Positions 3,001 through 35,435 of a stretch of DNA of 64,000 bases are shown here, piece after piece. The notes below the pieces were generated by a model. That model had not been told where the DNA came from, searched no databases, and saw only the letters and a list, made by a program, of their open reading frames with translations. Every line of letters starts with the position of its first letter. Position 1 is the stretch's first letter. The DNA is from Phycisphaerae bacterium (GTDB taxonomy: Bacteria > Planctomycetota > Phycisphaerae > SM23-33), in contig WRDM01000004.1 in assembly GCA_009783465.1 (NCBI GenBank), forward strand, positions 35,231 through 99,230. The letters are read 5' to 3'. The translations under genes were made by a program, and so were the position numbers.

Positions 3001-4785
3001 GGCCAGCGGGGAGCCATCCTCGTCGGGCAAAACTACTTCCGCCAGGACGACCGCCATCGCGACGAGGGCAACGAACGATTCGACAAATACGTCACCGACG
3101 AATTCCTCATCGGCGTCGTGTACGGCTGTCAGGTCGTCGTCACCAACCCCACCAGCACGCCGCGAAAACTCGACGTCCTCGTCCAGATCCCCCAGGGCGC
3201 CCTGCCGGTGGACAACACCCTCGCCACCAAGAGCATCCACGTCCAACTCGCGCCCTACGCGACGCAGACGCTCGAATACTTCTTCTATTGGCCAAAAACC
3301 GGCCAATTCACAGGCCTGCCCGTCCAGGTCAGCAAAGATGAACAACTCGTCGGCTTCGCCGAGCCGATGACGTTCAAGGTCGTCCGCGAACTGACGCAGA
3401 TCGACCGCACGAGTTGGGAATACGTCAGCCAGCACGGCTCCGGCGACGACGTGCTCGCGTTCCTCAAGGACAACAACGTCGAACGGCTGAACCTGTACCT
3501 CATCGCCTGGCGGATGGCCGACGCGAAATTCTTCGGCCAAACCCTCGCCCTGCTTCGCGACCGGCACATGTACGAAAACACGCTGTGGTCCTACGGCATC
3601 AAGCACAACGACGTGCCCGCCGTCCGCGAATTCCTGCTGCATCAAGACCACTTCGTCTATCAGTGTGGCCTGTGGCTGAGCAGCCCGTTGCTGAGCATCG
3701 ACCCCGTGACCCGGACGTGGTACCAGCACATGGAATACGCCCCGGTGGTCAACGCGCGGGCGCACCAGCTCGGCAAAACGCGAACCATCGTCAACGAACG
3801 GATTTTCCAGCAATATTCCGCCCTGCTGGAGGTGCTGAAATTCAAGCCCGCCCTCAACGACGAGGATCGATTGGCCGTCACGTACTACCTGCTGCTCCAG
3901 GACCGCGTGGAAGAAGGCTTGGCGTGTCTGAAATCGGTGGACGCAGCCAAGCTCGCCGAGCGGTTGCAGTACGATTACCTCCAGGCCTACGCGGGGTTCT
4001 ATACGGAAGATCTCGCCGCCAGCCGCGAGTTGACGACCGCGTACAAGGACTACCCGGTCGACCGCTGGCGGAAACTGTTCGAGGCCGTGGGTGTGCAACT
4101 GGACGAACTCGACGGCGCCGCCGCCGGTGTGGTGGATGAGCAGAGCCGCGACCAGGCAATGGGCAAACTCGCCGCCACCGAGCCGGGACTGGAATTCACC
4201 GTCGAGGGCGGCAAGGTGAAGATGACGTATCAGAACCTCGGCAACGCTTCCGTTCGCGTAAACTATTACCTGATGGACGTGGAACTGCTCTTCAGCAAGA
4301 ATCCGTTCGTCGAGCAAAGCGGCGCAACGAGCTTCGCGTATGTCCAGCCGAACGCGACGGCGGATCTGAAGTTGCCGGACTTCAAGGCCCATGTCGCCGA
4401 ACCCGCCGTCAAAACGTTCACGTTCGACCTGCCTAAAGAGATGGCCGGGCGTAACGTGATGATCGAAATCACCGCCGGGGCGGTCAAGCGACAGCAGGCG
4501 TACTACGCCAACACGATGGTCGTGACGATGCTCGAAAACTACGGCCAGGTGAAAGTCGCCGACGACAAAGGCAAGGCCCTGGCCAAAGCGTACGTGAAGG
4601 TCTACGCCCGCATGAAAACCGGCCAGGTGCGGTTCTACAAGGACGGCTACACCGACCTGCGAGGCCGCTTCGACTACGCCTCGCTCAACACCGACGACCT
4701 CGACAACGTCGAACGATTCTCCATCCTGGTCGTCAGCCCCGATAACGGCGCGCTCGTCCGCTCCGCCGCGCCGCCGAAACAATAG
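1..4785 (+). CDS. Large secreted/surface multidomain protein (beta-sandwich/macroglobulin-like), 5' end outside window
   Basis: Frame +1 is open from base 1 through the 1484-aa ORF to TAA at 4785; C-terminal carboxypeptidase-regulatory-like 'YGQVKVADDKGKALAKAYVKVYARMKTGQVRFYKDGYTDLRGRFDY'. Confidence 0.7.
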   Translation, partial: VTVPFTAQGGNQPIILHAAGLARLAYYRAIPEQYAFRAGIYIDRESLLRRRDAQVIVRPSLQIAGTPVSVHLLENVHLEIATTDREGVRSVKRVNDLTLFDDKETAVSFRVPDNILDVTCTLRAQIKSMATRQPIDLTATQSFPINQIDTTAHTQDLHLMHVDGDYMIELLGKTGEIQPNQAVRVTFKHRFFTQTIHATLKTDANGRIHLGKLPRVDLLRADAPQGFHRTWTLPRDQRAGHDVVHGQSMHRAEHGQALGVVFVPYLGQADKVTPENFSLLETRGGTFVVDRTAELALTGDGYLTTEGLAAGDYSLRLKETGQEITIRLAAGPVVEGYVMGATRKLEFNRHVPLNIVDVSADNDTVTIQLGGVTEFTRVHLVATRYQPNFSILGHLFLPVAGLDSVTSAYPPSLYVSGRDIGDEYRYILERKSAAKFPGNMLARPGLLLNPWAIRKTETGTQQAHAGSEYEMQGENLARGAGGRMFSSSAGGRPGTIPPHGGNLDFLSQTSAVLASLTPDENGLVTVKRANLGAHQQIHVLAVDTESSVYRELALPEQKMPFLDLRLMKEALPADKHFTERKQITPLQAGGQLVINDIGASRVETFDSLESVYRLYSALTNNPTLAEFNFILAWPGLNDEQKREKWSRYACHELAFFLYHKDRPFFDTVILPYLKNKKDKTFMDHYLLGNDQQLKTFTDPWAYRRLNAAERVLLAQRLADESARTARHVEDVFNLTPPNVERFNFLYNTALLSGGLDRGPRFGLRIQDGQSARELRTNLEYAAADADGERSYGYDADEDSPMLDASQAPAPMIAENAKSAAATPRAATAQADKADRAATTLPGTTLRRTERQPNDLIARVPNFAGAELELGERVEAMRQRREATRQFYRKLEATEELVENNYYRLPIGHQNESLIPVNGFWLDYAKYTDSNARRLGRATNFLSPNFIHAANTFSEMMLALAVLDLPFAAEKHDMAIDDAKLTLKAASPMIVFHKETKPAADGQRGAILVGQNYFRQDDRHRDEGNERFDKYVTDEFLIGVVYGCQVVVTNPTSTPRKLDVLVQIPQGALPVDNTLATKSIHVQLAPYATQTLEYFFYWPKTGQFTGLPVQVSKDEQLVGFAEPMTFKVVRELTQIDRTSWEYVSQHGSGDDVLAFLKDNNVERLNLYLIAWRMADAKFFGQTLALLRDRHMYENTLWSYGIKHNDVPAVREFLLHQDHFVYQCGLWLSSPLLSIDPVTRTWYQHMEYAPVVNARAHQLGKTRTIVNERIFQQYSALLEVLKFKPALNDEDRLAVTYYLLLQDRVEEGLACLKSVDAAKLAERLQYDYLQAYAGFYTEDLAASRELTTAYKDYPVDRWRKLFEAVGVQLDELDGAAAGVVDEQSRDQAMGKLAATEPGLEFTVEGGKVKMTYQNLGNASVRVNYYLMDVELLFSKNPFVEQSGATSFAYVQPNATADLKLPDFKAHVAEPAVKTFTFDLPKEMAGRNVMIEITAGAVKRQQAYYANTMVVTMLENYGQVKVADDKGKALAKAYVKVYARMKTGQVRFYKDGYTDLRGRFDYASLNTDDLDNVERFSILVVSPDNGALVRSAAPPKQ

Positions 4786-10295: not shown

Positions 10296-10337
10296 TCGCA
10301 CCGTCTATGCACATGACATATACCTGATGGCTTGTGG

Positions 10338-10946
10338 CTAGTGGCTTGTGGCGTTCTGCTGAGCGTACTCCTCGCTGACCCGCCAGCGCCAGACGTACCA
10401 CATTGCCGCCGCGATCATAATAACCCAGCCGGCGAAATAAATGCCGCTGGCGATGGTTTCGCAACTGTTGATGCAGCCGAGTTTGTTGAAGATGAACTGC
10501 CAGTCGTGCCGCCCGCCGCCGACCAGCGGCAGCGCACGGGCCTTCGCGTCGGCGGCGTAGCGGGCGACGTTCAAAAAATTCTCGCCAAGCCACAGCCCCG
10601 CCACCGCCACACCGGCCGTCTGGCGCCGCAGCCAGAAGTACACCCCGATTCCCAGCGGCACCATGCACTGGAGCAACGTCCCGCCCCACATTTGCAGGGT
10701 GTCGCCGAACGGCAGAAACACAATATGCCCGGCTTCGTGAATCGCCAGATTGACGTGATCGACAATAAACACAAACTGTTGTCGGGCCGTCAGAATCAAT
10801 AGCCAGAAAATCAGTGTGCCGATGGCAAAACCAATCATATGTCCGCGACTCACCACAAGCCAGCCGCCAGGAATCGCCGGCGCGGCGTTATAGGATGAAT
10901 ACGGCGACGATGAGTACTGTTGCGATGAGTTGTATTGAGGATCCAA
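10338..10946 (-). CDS. Membrane protein with HEAGH motif (M50-like or related)
   Basis: Several hydrophobic segments; 'NLAIHEAGHIVFLPFGDTLQMWGGTLLQ'. Confidence 0.55.
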   Translation of the reverse strand: MDPQYNSSQQYSSSPYSSYNAAPAIPGGWLVVSRGHMIGFAIGTLIFWLLILTARQQFVFIVDHVNLAIHEAGHIVFLPFGDTLQMWGGTLLQCMVPLGIGVYFWLRRQTAGVAVAGLWLGENFLNVARYAADAKARALPLVGGGRHDWQFIFNKLGCINSCETIASGIYFAGWVIMIAAAMWYVWRWRVSEEYAQQNATSH

Positions 10947-12629: not shown

Positions 12630-12814
12630 GTCCGAGGGAACCATTCAGCCAGTAGCCAATAGCCAGTAGGTAAGGAAGAGCAAAGGCGAAACGACAAAGA
12701 GAGCGGGAATGGTTGTCCACGGGCGAAGAACGTTGATCGTGTGATGACCCATACGTTTTGCCATACCTATTGGCTACTGGCTATTGGCTACTGGCTGAAC
12801 GGCTCCCTCGGACC
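12630..12814. repeat. Type C palindrome (C1)
   Basis: gtccgagggaaccattcagccagtagccaatagccagtaggtaagg / ccatacctattggctactggctattggctactggctgaacggctccctcggac. Confidence 0.9.
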
Positions 12815-14707: not shown

Positions 14708-14742
14708 CCATACCTGTTGGCTACTGGCTATTGGCTACTGGC
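14708..14742 (+). repeat. Type C single arm (C2)
   Basis: ccatacctgttggctactggctattggctactggc. Confidence 0.8.
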
Positions 14743-14950
14743 TTGCTTCCCTCCGAACGAATGGCTCACCCACGCCACGAGAATTGAAACCCTTCGCGCG
14801 AAATTCTTTTCATTTGCCCCTCGACCGTGTACATTTACGGGATGGACCGATAGGTCGGCTCGATGCCCTGGGCCGTTGTGTACTCCTATCCTATTAGTAG
14901 CTCTGTGCCCGCCACACGTCTGCCGGCGGGCGGCAAGGAAACGCCATAAC

Positions 14951-18837: not shown

Positions 18838-20898
18838 ATGCCCTTATTTCGCCCCCCAAAATATTGGCCGCACGTTGCCGCCACGGCGTTACTGGCGGTT
18901 TTCTGGGGGTTGTGTTATGGCAGTCTGTGGGACAAGAGTCCCATGTTTGACGAGCCGACGCATGTTGCCGGCGGGTATAGTTATTGGACCACCGGCGAGT
19001 TTCGGCTGCACACGGAGAACGGGTCGCTGCCGCAGCGGCTTGCGGGCGGGGCGTTGGTTGTGGGCGGCGTCGAGATGGACGTTCGGCGGTCGCCGGGCTG
19101 GCGGGAATCCAACGTGTACGAAGTCAGCCGGCAACTGCTCTACCGCAGCGGCCACGATCAGACGCACCTCATCCGCCTTGCCCGCGCGAGCATGACCACC
19201 GTCGCCGCCCTGCTTGGCCTGGCCGTGTACGTCCTGGCGCTGCGGCGATACGGGCATCGCGGCGCGTTGCTGAGTTTGGCCGCGTTTGCCTTCAGCCCGA
19301 CGTTCCTCGCGTACGGCGGGCTTGCCGTGTCGGACCTCACCGCGTCGCTGATGTTCCTGCTGGCCTCGGTGCTGACGTGGCAGGCGCTACGACGGGCGAC
19401 GTGGACGAGCGTGCTCTCGGCAGGCCTGGCGTGCGGCGGGCTGCTGCTGTCCAAATCCTCCGGGCCTGTGATCCTGGGCGTCATCGCCGTCATGCTCGTC
19501 GTACGGCTGATCAGCCGCGAGGGAATCACCTTCGCCGCGGGCCGGGCGTGGTCGGCGACGCTCCACTCGCGTCCGGGCCGACTGGCGGGCATGATCGCCG
19601 TCCTGTTCGTACAAGCCTTGCTGGCCGTCACGCTCGTGTGGGCGGCCTACGGATTCCGCTACGCCGCCATCCCCGCCCACAGCGGCCCCGGCGAACTCAT
19701 CGAGTCCTGGCAAAGCCTCTCGAAAAACGCGGGCCCCGCAGGCCGCTCGCTCCAACGCGCCGCCGAATACCAACTCCTGCCCGAAGCCTATCTCCACGGC
19801 CTCGCCTACACCATCGCCCACGCCGACAGCCGAATGGGCTTCATGACAGGCCAATACAGCGGCACCGGATGGCGATCCTACTTCCCCTTCTGTTTCGCCG
19901 TGAAAAACCCGTTGAGCTGGTTGGCGCTGCTGGCGACCGCGGCGGTGGCGGCGGTCGTCGCGTGGCGACGAAGCGACAAGCGACAAGTGACAAGCGACAA
20001 GAGCAGGAACGTCCTGTCTTCTACAACAACCGCTTCCCACGAGAGCGACGAAGTAAAACAAACGTCGCCTTCTCTTGTCACTAGTCGCTGGTCGCTTGTC
20101 GCGTCTTCCGTCTACGAAACCACGCCGCTGTGGGCGCTCGTTCTGATCTACGGTCTGACGGCCTGCCTCAGCCACATCAACATCGGGCATCGACACATTC
20201 TGCCGGTGTACGCGCCGCTGGCGGTGTTGATCGGGGCGGCTGCGACGATTCCCTGGCGGCGGTGGCGACTCCTGCCGCTGGCATTGGCTGCCCTGCTGGC
20301 GGCGGAGACGCTCTACTATTTTCCCCATTACGTGCCGTACATGAACCAGTTCGTCGGCGGGCCCGACAACGGCTGGCGGGTGCTGGGCGACAGCTCGCAG
20401 GAATGGGGCGGCGAATTGCCCGCCCTGAAACGATGGGTCGACGCCCGACGCGACCAACGCGGCGACGAGCCCATTTACTACTCGTATTTCGGCAGCGCCC
20501 TGCCGGCCTACTACGACATCGACGCCACGCAACTGTCCTCCTTCTACGACCTGCGAAGCCCGGACGACAAAGCCCTGGCCTCGCTGGGGCCTGGCACGTA
20601 CTGCATCAGCGCGTCGCAACTGATGCTCTGCCGCCCCTGGCCGATGGGGCCATGGAACGACGACTACGAGCGGGCGTACCAGCATCTGCGGTCGCTGGCC
20701 CTTCGCACCCGGAACGAACACCTGCGACACGACCGCCTGCGATTCGCACGCCTCTGCGCGTACCTGCGAACCCACAGCCAGCCCGTCGAAAAAATCAACT
20801 ACTCGTTCCTGGTCTTCGAAATCACGCCATCCCAACTCGACGCCGCCCTCGCAGGCCCCCCGCCGGAATTACGCCCGCGTGTGGACGCGGGGGAATAA
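18838..20898 (+). CDS. ArnT/PMT-like membrane glycosyltransferase, with an internal palindromic insertion
   Basis: N-terminal 'FDEPTHVAGGYSYWTTGEFRLHTENGSLPQRLAGG' typical of GT-C enzymes; multiple TM helices. Confidence 0.75.
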   Translation: MPLFRPPKYWPHVAATALLAVFWGLCYGSLWDKSPMFDEPTHVAGGYSYWTTGEFRLHTENGSLPQRLAGGALVVGGVEMDVRRSPGWRESNVYEVSRQLLYRSGHDQTHLIRLARASMTTVAALLGLAVYVLALRRYGHRGALLSLAAFAFSPTFLAYGGLAVSDLTASLMFLLASVLTWQALRRATWTSVLSAGLACGGLLLSKSSGPVILGVIAVMLVVRLISREGITFAAGRAWSATLHSRPGRLAGMIAVLFVQALLAVTLVWAAYGFRYAAIPAHSGPGELIESWQSLSKNAGPAGRSLQRAAEYQLLPEAYLHGLAYTIAHADSRMGFMTGQYSGTGWRSYFPFCFAVKNPLSWLALLATAAVAAVVAWRRSDKRQVTSDKSRNVLSSTTTASHESDEVKQTSPSLVTSRWSLVASSVYETTPLWALVLIYGLTACLSHINIGHRHILPVYAPLAVLIGAAATIPWRRWRLLPLALAALLAAETLYYFPHYVPYMNQFVGGPDNGWRVLGDSSQEWGGELPALKRWVDARRDQRGDEPIYYSYFGSALPAYYDIDATQLSSFYDLRSPDDKALASLGPGTYCISASQLMLCRPWPMGPWNDDYERAYQHLRSLALRTRNEHLRHDRLRFARLCAYLRTHSQPVEKINYSFLVFEITPSQLDAALAGPPPELRPRVDAGE
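19972..20102 (+). repeat. Type F palindrome inside a CDS
   Basis: Arms gcgacaagcgacaagtgacaagcgacaagag / ctcttgtcactagtcgctggtcgcttgtcgc, 27/31 complementary; ORF stays open (SDKRQVTSDKS...SLVTSRWSLVASS). Confidence 0.85.
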
Positions 20899-20916: not shown

Positions 20917-22452
20917 ATGAACTATATTTCCACCCGAGGACGGATCCGACCGTGTGCGTTTCTCGATGCCGTGATGATGGGCCTGGCCGATGACGGCGGG
21001 CTTGTGATTCCCGAAGCCATTCCCGACGTGCGCGATCGCCTGACGGCATGGCGGGAGTTGTCCTACGCCGACCTGGCGCTCGAGATCATTTCGCTCTTCG
21101 CCACCGACGTGCCTCGCGAGGAGTTGCGGCCACTCATCGACAACGCATACGCTGCCGACCGCTGGCCTGGCGGCGTGGCGCCGACGGTGGCCGTCGGCGA
21201 CCTGCACGTGCTGGAACTCTGGCACGGCCCGACGCTGGCGTTCAAGGACGTCGCGCTGCAACTGCTGGGCAACCTCTTCGAATACGTGCTCGCCAGACGG
21301 CCTGGGGAGCGGCTCAACATCCTCGGCGCCACCAGCGGCGACACCGGCTCGGCCGCCATCGCCGGCGTGAGAGGCCGGGCGGGAATCGACATCTTCATGA
21401 TGCACCCGCGTGGCCGAACCAGCCCCATCCAGGCCCGCCAGATGACCACCGTGCTCGACGACAACGTCCACAACATCGCCATTCAGGGCGACTTCGACGA
21501 CTGTCAGCGGATCATGAAAACCCTGGCCGGCGATTTGGCATTCAAACGCCGCCACCGGGTCGGCGCGGTCAACAGCGTCAACTGGGCCCGCGTGCTGGCA
21601 CAGATCGTCTACTACTTCAAATCGGCGTTCGACGTGCAGTCACAACGTAGCACGGGCGTCCCGCCCGTGAGTCGCATGGGCGTCTCGCCCATGCAAAGCC
21701 AGCCAACAGACAAAACGCCCGCATCCCGGCAAAACCATCACGGGCAAGATGCCCGTGAGACTCACGGGCGGGACGCCCGTGCTACGGAGAAGACCGTCAC
21801 CTTCGCCGTGCCGACCGGCAATTTCGGCGACGTCCTCGCCGGCTGGTACGCGATGCAAATGGGCTGCCCCATCAGCAGGCTCATCCTCGCCACCAACGTC
21901 AACGACATCCTCGCGCGATTTTTCGCCACCGGAACATACAGCGCCGGCTCCGTCACGCCAACCTCTTCACCGTCGATGGATATCCAAGTCTCCAGCAACT
22001 TCGAACGATACCTCTACCACCGCGTCGGCGAAGACCCGGCCAGATTGACGACGTTAATGCAAAACTTCGCCGACAACGGCTCGCTGTGCGTGGCCTTGGA
22101 TCGCGACGGCGTGGTGGACCCACAACTCGCCGCCGGCTCCGCCGGCGAACAGGACGTGCTCGCCACCATCACCGACACCTGGCGGGATCACAAGTACCTG
22201 CTGGATCCGCACACCGCCGTCGGCGTCCACGTCGCCCGCCGCCTGCGACGCGACGGTGAAACGGTCGTCTGCCTGGCCACCGCGCACCCGGCCAAGTTCC
22301 CCGCCGCCATCGAGCAGGCCGTCGGCGAAAACCTCGCCCACCACGACCGCCTCGACGCCCTCGCAAACCTGCCCACACGCTGCGCCGACCTGCCAAACGA
22401 TCCACAGGCCGTGCGGATGTTCATCGAAACCACCTTGGAAAGGAAAACATAA
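20917..22452 (+). CDS. thrC: Threonine synthase with ~46-50 aa repeat-derived insertion
   Basis: MNYISTRGRIRPCAFLDAVMMGLADDGGLVIPE, HGPTLAFKDVALQLLG, LGATSGDTGSAAI, VNSVNWARVLAQIVYYF, FAVPTGNFGDVLAGWYAMQMG. Confidence 0.93.
   Translation: MNYISTRGRIRPCAFLDAVMMGLADDGGLVIPEAIPDVRDRLTAWRELSYADLALEIISLFATDVPREELRPLIDNAYAADRWPGGVAPTVAVGDLHVLELWHGPTLAFKDVALQLLGNLFEYVLARRPGERLNILGATSGDTGSAAIAGVRGRAGIDIFMMHPRGRTSPIQARQMTTVLDDNVHNIAIQGDFDDCQRIMKTLAGDLAFKRRHRVGAVNSVNWARVLAQIVYYFKSAFDVQSQRSTGVPPVSRMGVSPMQSQPTDKTPASRQNHHGQDARETHGRDARATEKTVTFAVPTGNFGDVLAGWYAMQMGCPISRLILATNVNDILARFFATGTYSAGSVTPTSSPSMDIQVSSNFERYLYHRVGEDPARLTTLMQNFADNGSLCVALDRDGVVDPQLAAGSAGEQDVLATITDTWRDHKYLLDPHTAVGVHVARRLRRDGETVVCLATAHPAKFPAAIEQAVGENLAHHDRLDALANLPTRCADLPNDPQAVRMFIETTLERKT
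21647..21785 (+). repeat. Type G palindrome (TGVPPV/HGRDARAT type) inside thrC
   Basis: Perfect 25-bp arms GTAGCACGGGCGTCCCGCCCGTGAG / CTCACGGGCGGGACGCCCGTGCTAC with inner hairpins; reads STGVPPVS...HGQDARETHGRDARAT. Confidence 0.95.
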
Positions 22453-23087: not shown

Positions 23088-23202
23088 AAAACGTTCTCTA
23101 TATCCTCCGTAACAAACAAACGTGACGGAAGACGATTGAAACATCATCGGTGTGGCAACGAGTGGGTTGGCCTCCCCGGTCTCGTATGTGGAGTGCCGAC
23201 AC

Positions 23203-34072: not shown

Positions 34073-34082
34073 GAAGCAAAGA

Positions 34083-34183
34083 GGCTGTTAGACTATTAGG
34101 CTGTTAGGCGCGGGCTTATGAAACGTTTGGCCTAATGATGCATAAGCCTCTCCCTAACAGCCTAACAGCCTAACAGCCTGAAG
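34083..34183. repeat. Type I palindrome
   Basis: aggctgttagactattaggctgttagg / cctaacagcctaacagcctaacagcct. Confidence 0.9.
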
Positions 34184-35256: not shown

Positions 35257-35343
35257 CGGGGTCTTTCAATTCTCGCTCGAAACGAAGATTTCCATACCCG
35301 GGCGACTACCAGGGCCATCGCATCTAAAAAGGCCCATTTTTAG

Positions 35344-35435
35344 GCTGTAGGCTGTGGGCTGTAGGTTGATTTTCCTTTGCGAAACATCGGTCGCAGAGGC
35401 ATGTCTCCTACAGCCTACAGCCTTTTCGCGAAAAA
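35344..35435. repeat. Type J palindrome
   Basis: aggctgtaggctgtgggctgtagg / cctacagcctacagcct. Confidence 0.8.

What the first reader, a model, noticed from the sequence alone, without database searches (positions are those of the whole stretch)
19972..20102. Second CDS-internal palindrome, a different family, in a membrane glycosyltransferase
A 131-nt type F palindrome (27/31 arm pairing) lies inside the 686-aa GT-C-like gene and is translated as SDKRQVTSDKS...SLVTSRWSLVASS between TM segments. A second in-frame event by an unrelated repeat within 1.7 kb of the thrC event suggests tolerance of in-frame insertions is general in this genome.
Basis: partly seen in the sequence, partly recalled or inferred. 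Interest (0 to 1): 0.75.

Follow-up and report, generated by a model that had tools for sequence, protein, structure and literature searches.

The report
Repeat palindrome inserted within glycosyltransferase gene
A 132-base hairpin-forming repeat, one of about two dozen copies that otherwise sit between genes in this bacterium, has landed inside a membrane-enzyme gene without breaking its reading frame and is predicted to be translated as a 44-residue loop; this is a real but exceptional event, and of a kind already known from other bacteria.

Summary
In detail: a 132-nt imperfect palindrome (19972-20103; 27/31 arm pairing; folding z about -6 to -7) lies in frame inside the 686-aa GT-C-like ORF. 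It is a copy of a dispersed repeat (type F). I found 24 canonical copies in the 2.48-Mb, 70%-complete assembly and almost nothing like it in 198 other genomes of the class. Its arms are tandem heptamers (GYGACAA, up to 4 per arm) around an asymmetric core. Orthologues from other genera have a loop of about 15-21 residues where this protein has 49, so a shorter ancestral loop is supported; no same-genus empty site is available. Tolerance belongs to the other family: the thrC palindrome is REP/REPIN-like and CDS-internal in 16 of 22 sampled loci, with a RAYT-like transposase bracketed by such repeats in frame inside valS. Best explanation: a chance in-frame landing of a non-autonomous mobile palindrome in a permissive, probably cytosolic loop; its mobilising enzyme was not found. 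In-frame palindromes are known (Rickettsia RPEs, intragenic REPs); heptamer-built inverted arms appear undescribed in the papers I could search.

The parts
19972..20103 (+). Type F palindromic element, 132 nt, in frame, encodes aa 379-422
   Evidence: (102 bits to model R1)
19972..20003 (+). Left arm: four tandem heptamers (GCGACAA GCGACAA GTGACAA GCGACAA) plus GAG
   Evidence: period-7 arrays absent from Markov sequences
20072..20103 (+). Right arm: inverted heptamers (CTCTTGTCACTAGTCGCTGGTCGCTTGTCGCG)
20004..20071 (+). Asymmetric core shared by the family (CAGGAACGTCCTGTCTTC ... ACGTCGCCTT)
   Evidence: Alignments of 22-26 copies
18838..20898 (+). Host gene: 686-aa multispanning GT-C-like (PMT/PMT_2 superfamily) protein

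Best explanation
The feature is one copy of a lineage-restricted, non-autonomous interspersed palindromic element ('type F', mostly about 110-132 nt, tandem-heptamer arms around an asymmetric core). Shown here: it is multicopy, strongly hairpin-forming, found in either orientation, without evident target-site duplication, and almost always in intergenic DNA. Inferred: it spreads by copying through a single-stranded or hairpin intermediate, moved in trans by an enzyme not recognised in the assembly. One copy landed in the gene for a GT-C-like membrane protein, between two TM segments. It has 4+4 heptamers and 132 nt = 44 codons, and the frame it is read in has no stop, so the protein gained a hydrophilic 44-residue segment (net about 30 residues against orthologues). 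The loop is probably cytosolic and away from the presumed periplasmic active site, so the insert was tolerated. No function of the peptide or the hairpin is implied.
For: Copies: 22 canonical copies aligned (mean column identity 74%), two more (C25:17909 and the short C35:6395); 63 model hits counting both strands of each palindrome and partial relatives. Shorter loop in relatives: HSPs of same-family genomes break at query aa ~378-387 and resume at 415-423 with only about 3-16 residues between in the subject; in the alignment the loop is 49 aa here and about 15-21 in most orthologues, while the flanking TM segments align. Reading frame: 45 of 138 frames of 23 copies are stop-free, so about 11% of random landings would be frame-compatible; no special adaptation is needed. 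No TSD beyond 0-1 nt. Under-representation in CDS: 1 of 24 internal. Hydropathy places the insert between TM-like segments 352-370 and 431-449; counting back from the C-terminal domain makes the loop cytosolic if that domain is periplasmic, as in GT-C enzymes (plus general knowledge).
Against: No same-genus genome is held, so the exact empty site was not seen; the nearest orthologues are only about 33-37% identical. If the 132 nt are taken out the loop would be about 14 residues shorter than in most orthologues, so either some loop was lost with the insertion or the ancestral loop was short. No mobilising enzyme was found: the two Y1 transposases in the assembly are associated with other palindrome families. 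The variable position of the heptamer arm that RNAalifold pairs shows mismatches rather than compensation, so selection on the hairpin is not shown.
Confidence: 0.82

Rival explanations
1. Protein-coding palindrome in the Rickettsia RPE sense: type F is adapted to be read in frame and has spread in proteins, as RPEs have.
For: In-frame, no stops, hydrophilic charged peptide in a loop, size like RPEs of about 150 bp (PMC10969869). Four more copies supply the C-terminal residues or stop of a gene.
Against: Only 1 of 24 copies is CDS-internal; copy lengths are not biased to multiples of three (5 of 23) and only a third of frames are open. The thrC-type family, not F, behaves like RPEs (elements often 135 or 162 nt, 16 of 22 loci internal).
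Confidence: 0.06
2. The hairpin acts on its own host gene as an intragenic RNA regulator (attenuates expression of the GT-C gene or the downstream thrC, or stabilises the mRNA).
For: Very stable predicted RNA hairpin, -61 kcal/mol. thrC starts 18 nt after the GT-C stop, so a shared transcript is likely. REP-like hairpins are thought to act post-transcriptionally (PMC3733652).
Against: Ribosomes translating the ORF would unfold it; the site is not kept in other genera; no compensatory changes in the arm heptamers.
Confidence: 0.07
3. Not an insertion: a native variable linker that grew by heptamer slippage.
For: Arms are tandem heptamers, which can expand by slippage; loop length varies among orthologues.
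Against: The asymmetric core (about 70 nt) is shared with intergenic copies elsewhere in the genome; tblastn matches the insert to C3:76748-76891 at 65% aa identity over 48 aa, in DNA that is not a GT-C gene.
Confidence: 0.03
4. Assembly artefact or pseudogene.
For: Draft assembly, 70 contigs, 69.6% complete.
Against: The ORF is intact on both sides with coding signal, orthologues align to both halves in the same frame, and copies differ too much (about 74% column identity) to be confused in assembly.
Confidence: 0.02

Closest known systems
Rickettsia palindromic elements (RPE; Ogata et al. 2000, reviewed in PMC10969869)
   Same: Roughly 110-150-bp imperfect palindromes, several families per genome, dispersed, found in frame inside a gene and predicted to be translated as an extra segment.
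   Different: RPEs of some families are often in ORFs; type F is nearly always intergenic. Different taxon, and the arms here are tandem heptamers.
Intragenic GTAG/CGTC REPs and REPINs moved by RAYT (PMC3733652; PMC3116915)
   Same: Palindromic, multicopy, mostly intergenic, some in frame in genes; such repeats are reported in Planctomycetes and Verrucomicrobia too (PMC3733652).
   Different: Type F has no GTAG/CGTC-tagged 20-40-nt hairpin unit, is longer, and has no RAYT flanked by type F in the assembly. The thrC element of this genome (GTAG-tagged hairpins) fits this class much better.
ERIC, Correia, BOX and other bacterial MITE-like elements (PMC10969869)
   Same: Short non-autonomous hairpin elements in intergenic DNA, occasionally fused into ORFs.
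   Different: No target-site duplication and no parent IS detected; heptamer arrays as arms.
Tandem heptamer repeats: TAACTGA of Beggiatoaceae and Cyanobacteria (PMC4679880)
   Same: Heptamer units, two to six copies, mostly intergenic.
   Different: Those are direct repeats (one inverted case reported); here canonical elements have a heptamer array in each arm, inverted, around a shared core.

Membership tests
Rickettsia palindromic element (RPE) type coding palindrome | Multicopy palindrome of about 100-150 nt with strong hairpin | tested here: met
Rickettsia palindromic element (RPE) type coding palindrome | Frequent in-frame insertion in unrelated protein genes | tested here: not met
   1 of 24 canonical copies internal
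Rickettsia palindromic element (RPE) type coding palindrome | Sequence homology to RPE families | not tested
   RPE sequences were not fetched
GTAG/CGTC REP-REPIN | 20-40-nt hairpin tagged with GTAG or CGTC at one end | tested here: not met
   Copies end in AGYGACAA / TTGTCRCT heptamers without such a tag
GTAG/CGTC REP-REPIN | Associated Y1/HuH transposase (RAYT) flanked by the repeat | tested here: inconclusive
   Two PF01797 genes: one sits in valS between REP-type peptides, the other between CCCCGAAGGGG-type repeats. A single type F half-arm lies about 200 nt from the latter. Some 30% of the genome is missing.
MITE with parent IS | Terminal inverted repeats | tested here: met
   Heptamer arms
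MITE with parent IS | Target-site duplication | tested here: not met
   0-1 nt at 23 copies; copy ends are uncertain by a heptamer or so, so a short TSD could be missed
MITE with parent IS | Autonomous relative with the same ends | tested here: inconclusive
   None noticed around the copies fetched, but no systematic transposase search beyond PF01797 was made and the genome is incomplete
Tandem heptamer repeats (TAACTGA type) | Arrays of direct heptamers only | tested here: not met
   Arrays occur as inverted pairs around a core
GT-C glycosyltransferase (host gene) | Match to a GT-C Pfam family over its curated cut-off | tested here: not met
   PMT 22.1 bits (cut-off 22.7), PMT_2 22.6 (cut-off 26.1)
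GT-C glycosyltransferase (host gene) | Multispanning membrane protein with long first loop bearing an acidic motif | tested here: inconclusive
   About 10 TM-like segments and FDEPTH at the start of an 80-residue loop; not compared with a solved structure

The most novel reading that the evidence does not exclude
Heptamer-armed palindromes are an unrecognised, cross-phylum class of bacterial mobile element: different families and species use different heptamers (GYGACAA, GCCACWA, GGGACTA, AGGAGAC) but keep the design of up to about four inverted heptamers per arm around a core, with arms renewed by slippage or copying inside the hairpin, and moved by a common, still unknown enzyme.
Probability: 0.3. 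Interest if true: 0.65.

Novelty: new variant of a known kind. Interest (0 to 1): 0.4.

Why it matters
In one genome, one palindrome family (REP/REPIN-like, thrC) readily lives inside genes, while another of similar size (type F) is nearly excluded from them, so in-gene tolerance looks like a property of the repeat family and not of the genome. That gives a natural paired comparison for testing what lets a mobile hairpin become protein sequence. The heptamer-built arms also raise a concrete question about how such arms are made and kept.

Tried and rejected
(1) RAYT as mover of type F: the Y1 transposase at C23:13455-14003 has a type F half-arm nearby, but its immediate inverted flanks are CCCCGAAGGGG-type repeats; rejected as proof. 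(2) Second CDS-internal type F copy: tblastn suggested C3:76748 in a 592-aa open frame; gene calls put it between two minus-strand genes, so that frame is read as a shadow ORF. (3) Same-genus orthologue in genome contigs: none found. (4) Type F pattern in viral contigs: the server gave no answer. (5) RNA-structure conservation: consensus structure has 15 pairs, one with a compensatory change, covariation term -0.23; no support for a selected RNA. (6) Single hits of the loose F regex inside CDS are taken as 12-mer chance matches, since they have no second arm.

Full report
What is there. The palindrome is real and very slightly longer than stated: 19972-20103, 132 nt, 27 of 31 arm bases paired (19973-20003 with 20072-20102; read; one search gives 41-nt arms at 83%). 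It folds far better than shuffles (z -7.2 RNA, -6.3 DNA). The arms are tandem heptamers: GCGACAA GCGACAA GTGACAA GCGACAA on the left and their inverted counterparts on the right. The ORF 18838-20898 (686 aa) is open through it, and the element is exactly 44 codons, aa 379-422.

A dispersed family. A 15-mer of the arm with one mismatch has 98 hits in the genome and none for the reversed control. I fetched the copies, oriented and aligned them. They share an asymmetric core of about 70 nt (GAGMAGGAAAATCTTGTCTTTCAAAACG ... GCGAGAACG ... GCCTTCTC) with one to four heptamers per arm. A covariance model from 22 copies finds those, one further copy with changed heptamers in both arms (C25:17909, GTGACGA/GTGATGA), one short copy (C35:6395) and partial or more distant relatives. 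That makes 24 canonical copies. In 198 other genomes of the class only three give weak matches, so the family is restricted to this lineage as far as the sample shows.

Where copies sit. With a simple codon-usage gene caller trained on this genome (coding fraction about 0.79), 19 of 24 are intergenic, 4 overlap the 3' end of a gene, and 1, the copy in question, is wholly inside a CDS. Under random placement the chance of at most one internal copy is 5e-15 at that coding fraction and 1e-8 at 0.6. Insertions into genes are therefore purged or avoided.

The host gene and the shorter loop. Relatives in other genera of the same family align on both sides of the insert and break across it. In the alignment the loop between the two TM segments is 49 residues here and about 15-21 in most orthologues. 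Two limits: identity is only about 35%, and no same-genus genome is held (none found in genome contigs either). Removing the 132 nt would leave a loop shorter than in most orthologues, so the event may have replaced a few residues.

Why it was tolerated. About one third of frames in the copies are stop-free (45 of 138), so about one in nine random landings would be frame-compatible. This copy needs no special adaptation. The insert falls between TM-like segments 352-370 and 431-449. If the C-terminal domain is periplasmic, as in GT-C enzymes, this loop is cytosolic (inference), away from the active site.

Is tolerance general? Not for type F, and not for three other palindrome families in 445 kb (0 of 32, 12 and 13 internal). 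It is common for the thrC family. That element (21646-21786) contains GTAG-tagged hairpins (GTAGCACGGGCGTCCCGCCCGTG). Using its translation as query, 16 of 22 distinct loci are CDS-internal with positive coding signal on both sides, many with elements of 135 or 162 nt, multiples of three (the query biases this sample). In a sample not chosen for it, 4 of 9 are internal. Fisher tests of F against these two samples give P = 1e-6 and 0.013. Intragenic REPs and the RPEs of Rickettsia are published precedents (PMC3733652; PMC10969869).

Movement. No target-site duplication is seen. The assembly has two PF01797 (Y1/HuH) genes. One lies in frame in valS, bracketed by thrC-type REP peptides; the other is bracketed by inverted CCCCGAAGGGG-type repeats. 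Neither is tied to type F. I infer mobilisation in trans by an enzyme in the missing 30% of the genome, unrecognised, or since lost; this step is not shown.

Heptamer arms. Period 7 is the peak among tandem arrays in this genome (116 arrays and 31 inverted pairs in the fetched loci, which are biased to F; 6 arrays in the window against 0 in Markov sequences). Other genomes have the same design with other units: GGGACTA in G160, AGGAGAC in G181. Two Pyrinomonadaceae contigs carry GTGACAA-armed elements of similar size with a second, inner heptamer pair, though they were found by a pattern containing one arm. Of five other class members sampled at arbitrary places, two show some period-7 arrays (one with an inverted pair) and three show none. 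I found no paper describing inverted heptamer arms; the nearest is TAACTGA direct repeats (PMC4679880). The search was limited to open papers.

Verdict. A real, in-frame, single exceptional insertion of a mainly intergenic mobile palindrome; a known kind of event with an unusual element architecture.

Noticed in passing
L128:2-2827 (-) (own genome contig C1): valS encodes valyl-tRNA synthetase with a complete Y1/HuH RAYT-like protein (aa ~216-461, motif NHVHVVIHP) in frame, bracketed by REP-type peptides, at a point where T. thermophilus ValRS has 5 residues (between 204 and 210); a second in-frame palindrome lies at aa ~655-706. It is the only valS match listed for the assembly.
   Followed up: partly
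L224 (G038), L225 (G006), L226 (G005), L227 (G010): The RAYT-in-valS arrangement recurs: same site in G006 (same family) and G038 (other family), RAYT part about 54% identical while the ValRS part is about 70%; in G005 a RAYT sits at a different place, near the C-terminus of the same valS ORF; G010 has valS without it. A recurrent or retained in-frame transposase in an essential gene deserves its own study.
   Followed up: partly
21646-21786: The thrC palindrome contains GTAG-tagged hairpins and is CDS-internal in most sampled copies, often 135 or 162 nt long: an RPE-like coding palindrome of the same kind that brackets the RAYT in valS.
   Followed up: partly
L127:3456-4004 (-) with flanks about 3320-3400 and 3990-4100: Second Y1 transposase of the genome (C23), flanked by inverted copies of the AGCCCCGAAGGGG..GGTAGCCCAGGGTGAGC repeat that is also in the window at 23197 and 46627.
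   Followed up: partly
12630-12813, 10324-10355, 14714-14745, 34082-34179, 35338-35369: Further heptamer or octamer arrays, some as inverted pairs (AGCCAGT/AGCCAAT, TAACAGCC, TAGGCTG), i.e. probable other heptamer-armed palindromes in the window.
   Followed up: no
L058:4011-4243: A type F element (C17:25210-25442) contains another heptamer palindrome (ACAGCCT-type units) inside it: a nested insertion.
   Followed up: no
L176:7005-7160 and L187:1592-1746: Pyrinomonadaceae contigs with F-like outer heptamer arms and a different inner heptamer pair (ATCGTGA).
   Followed up: partly
L046:4903-4986 (C8:35702-35785): REP-type palindrome in frame in an 802-aa ORF that reads like an RNase II/R family protein (motif recalled, not tested).
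   Followed up: no
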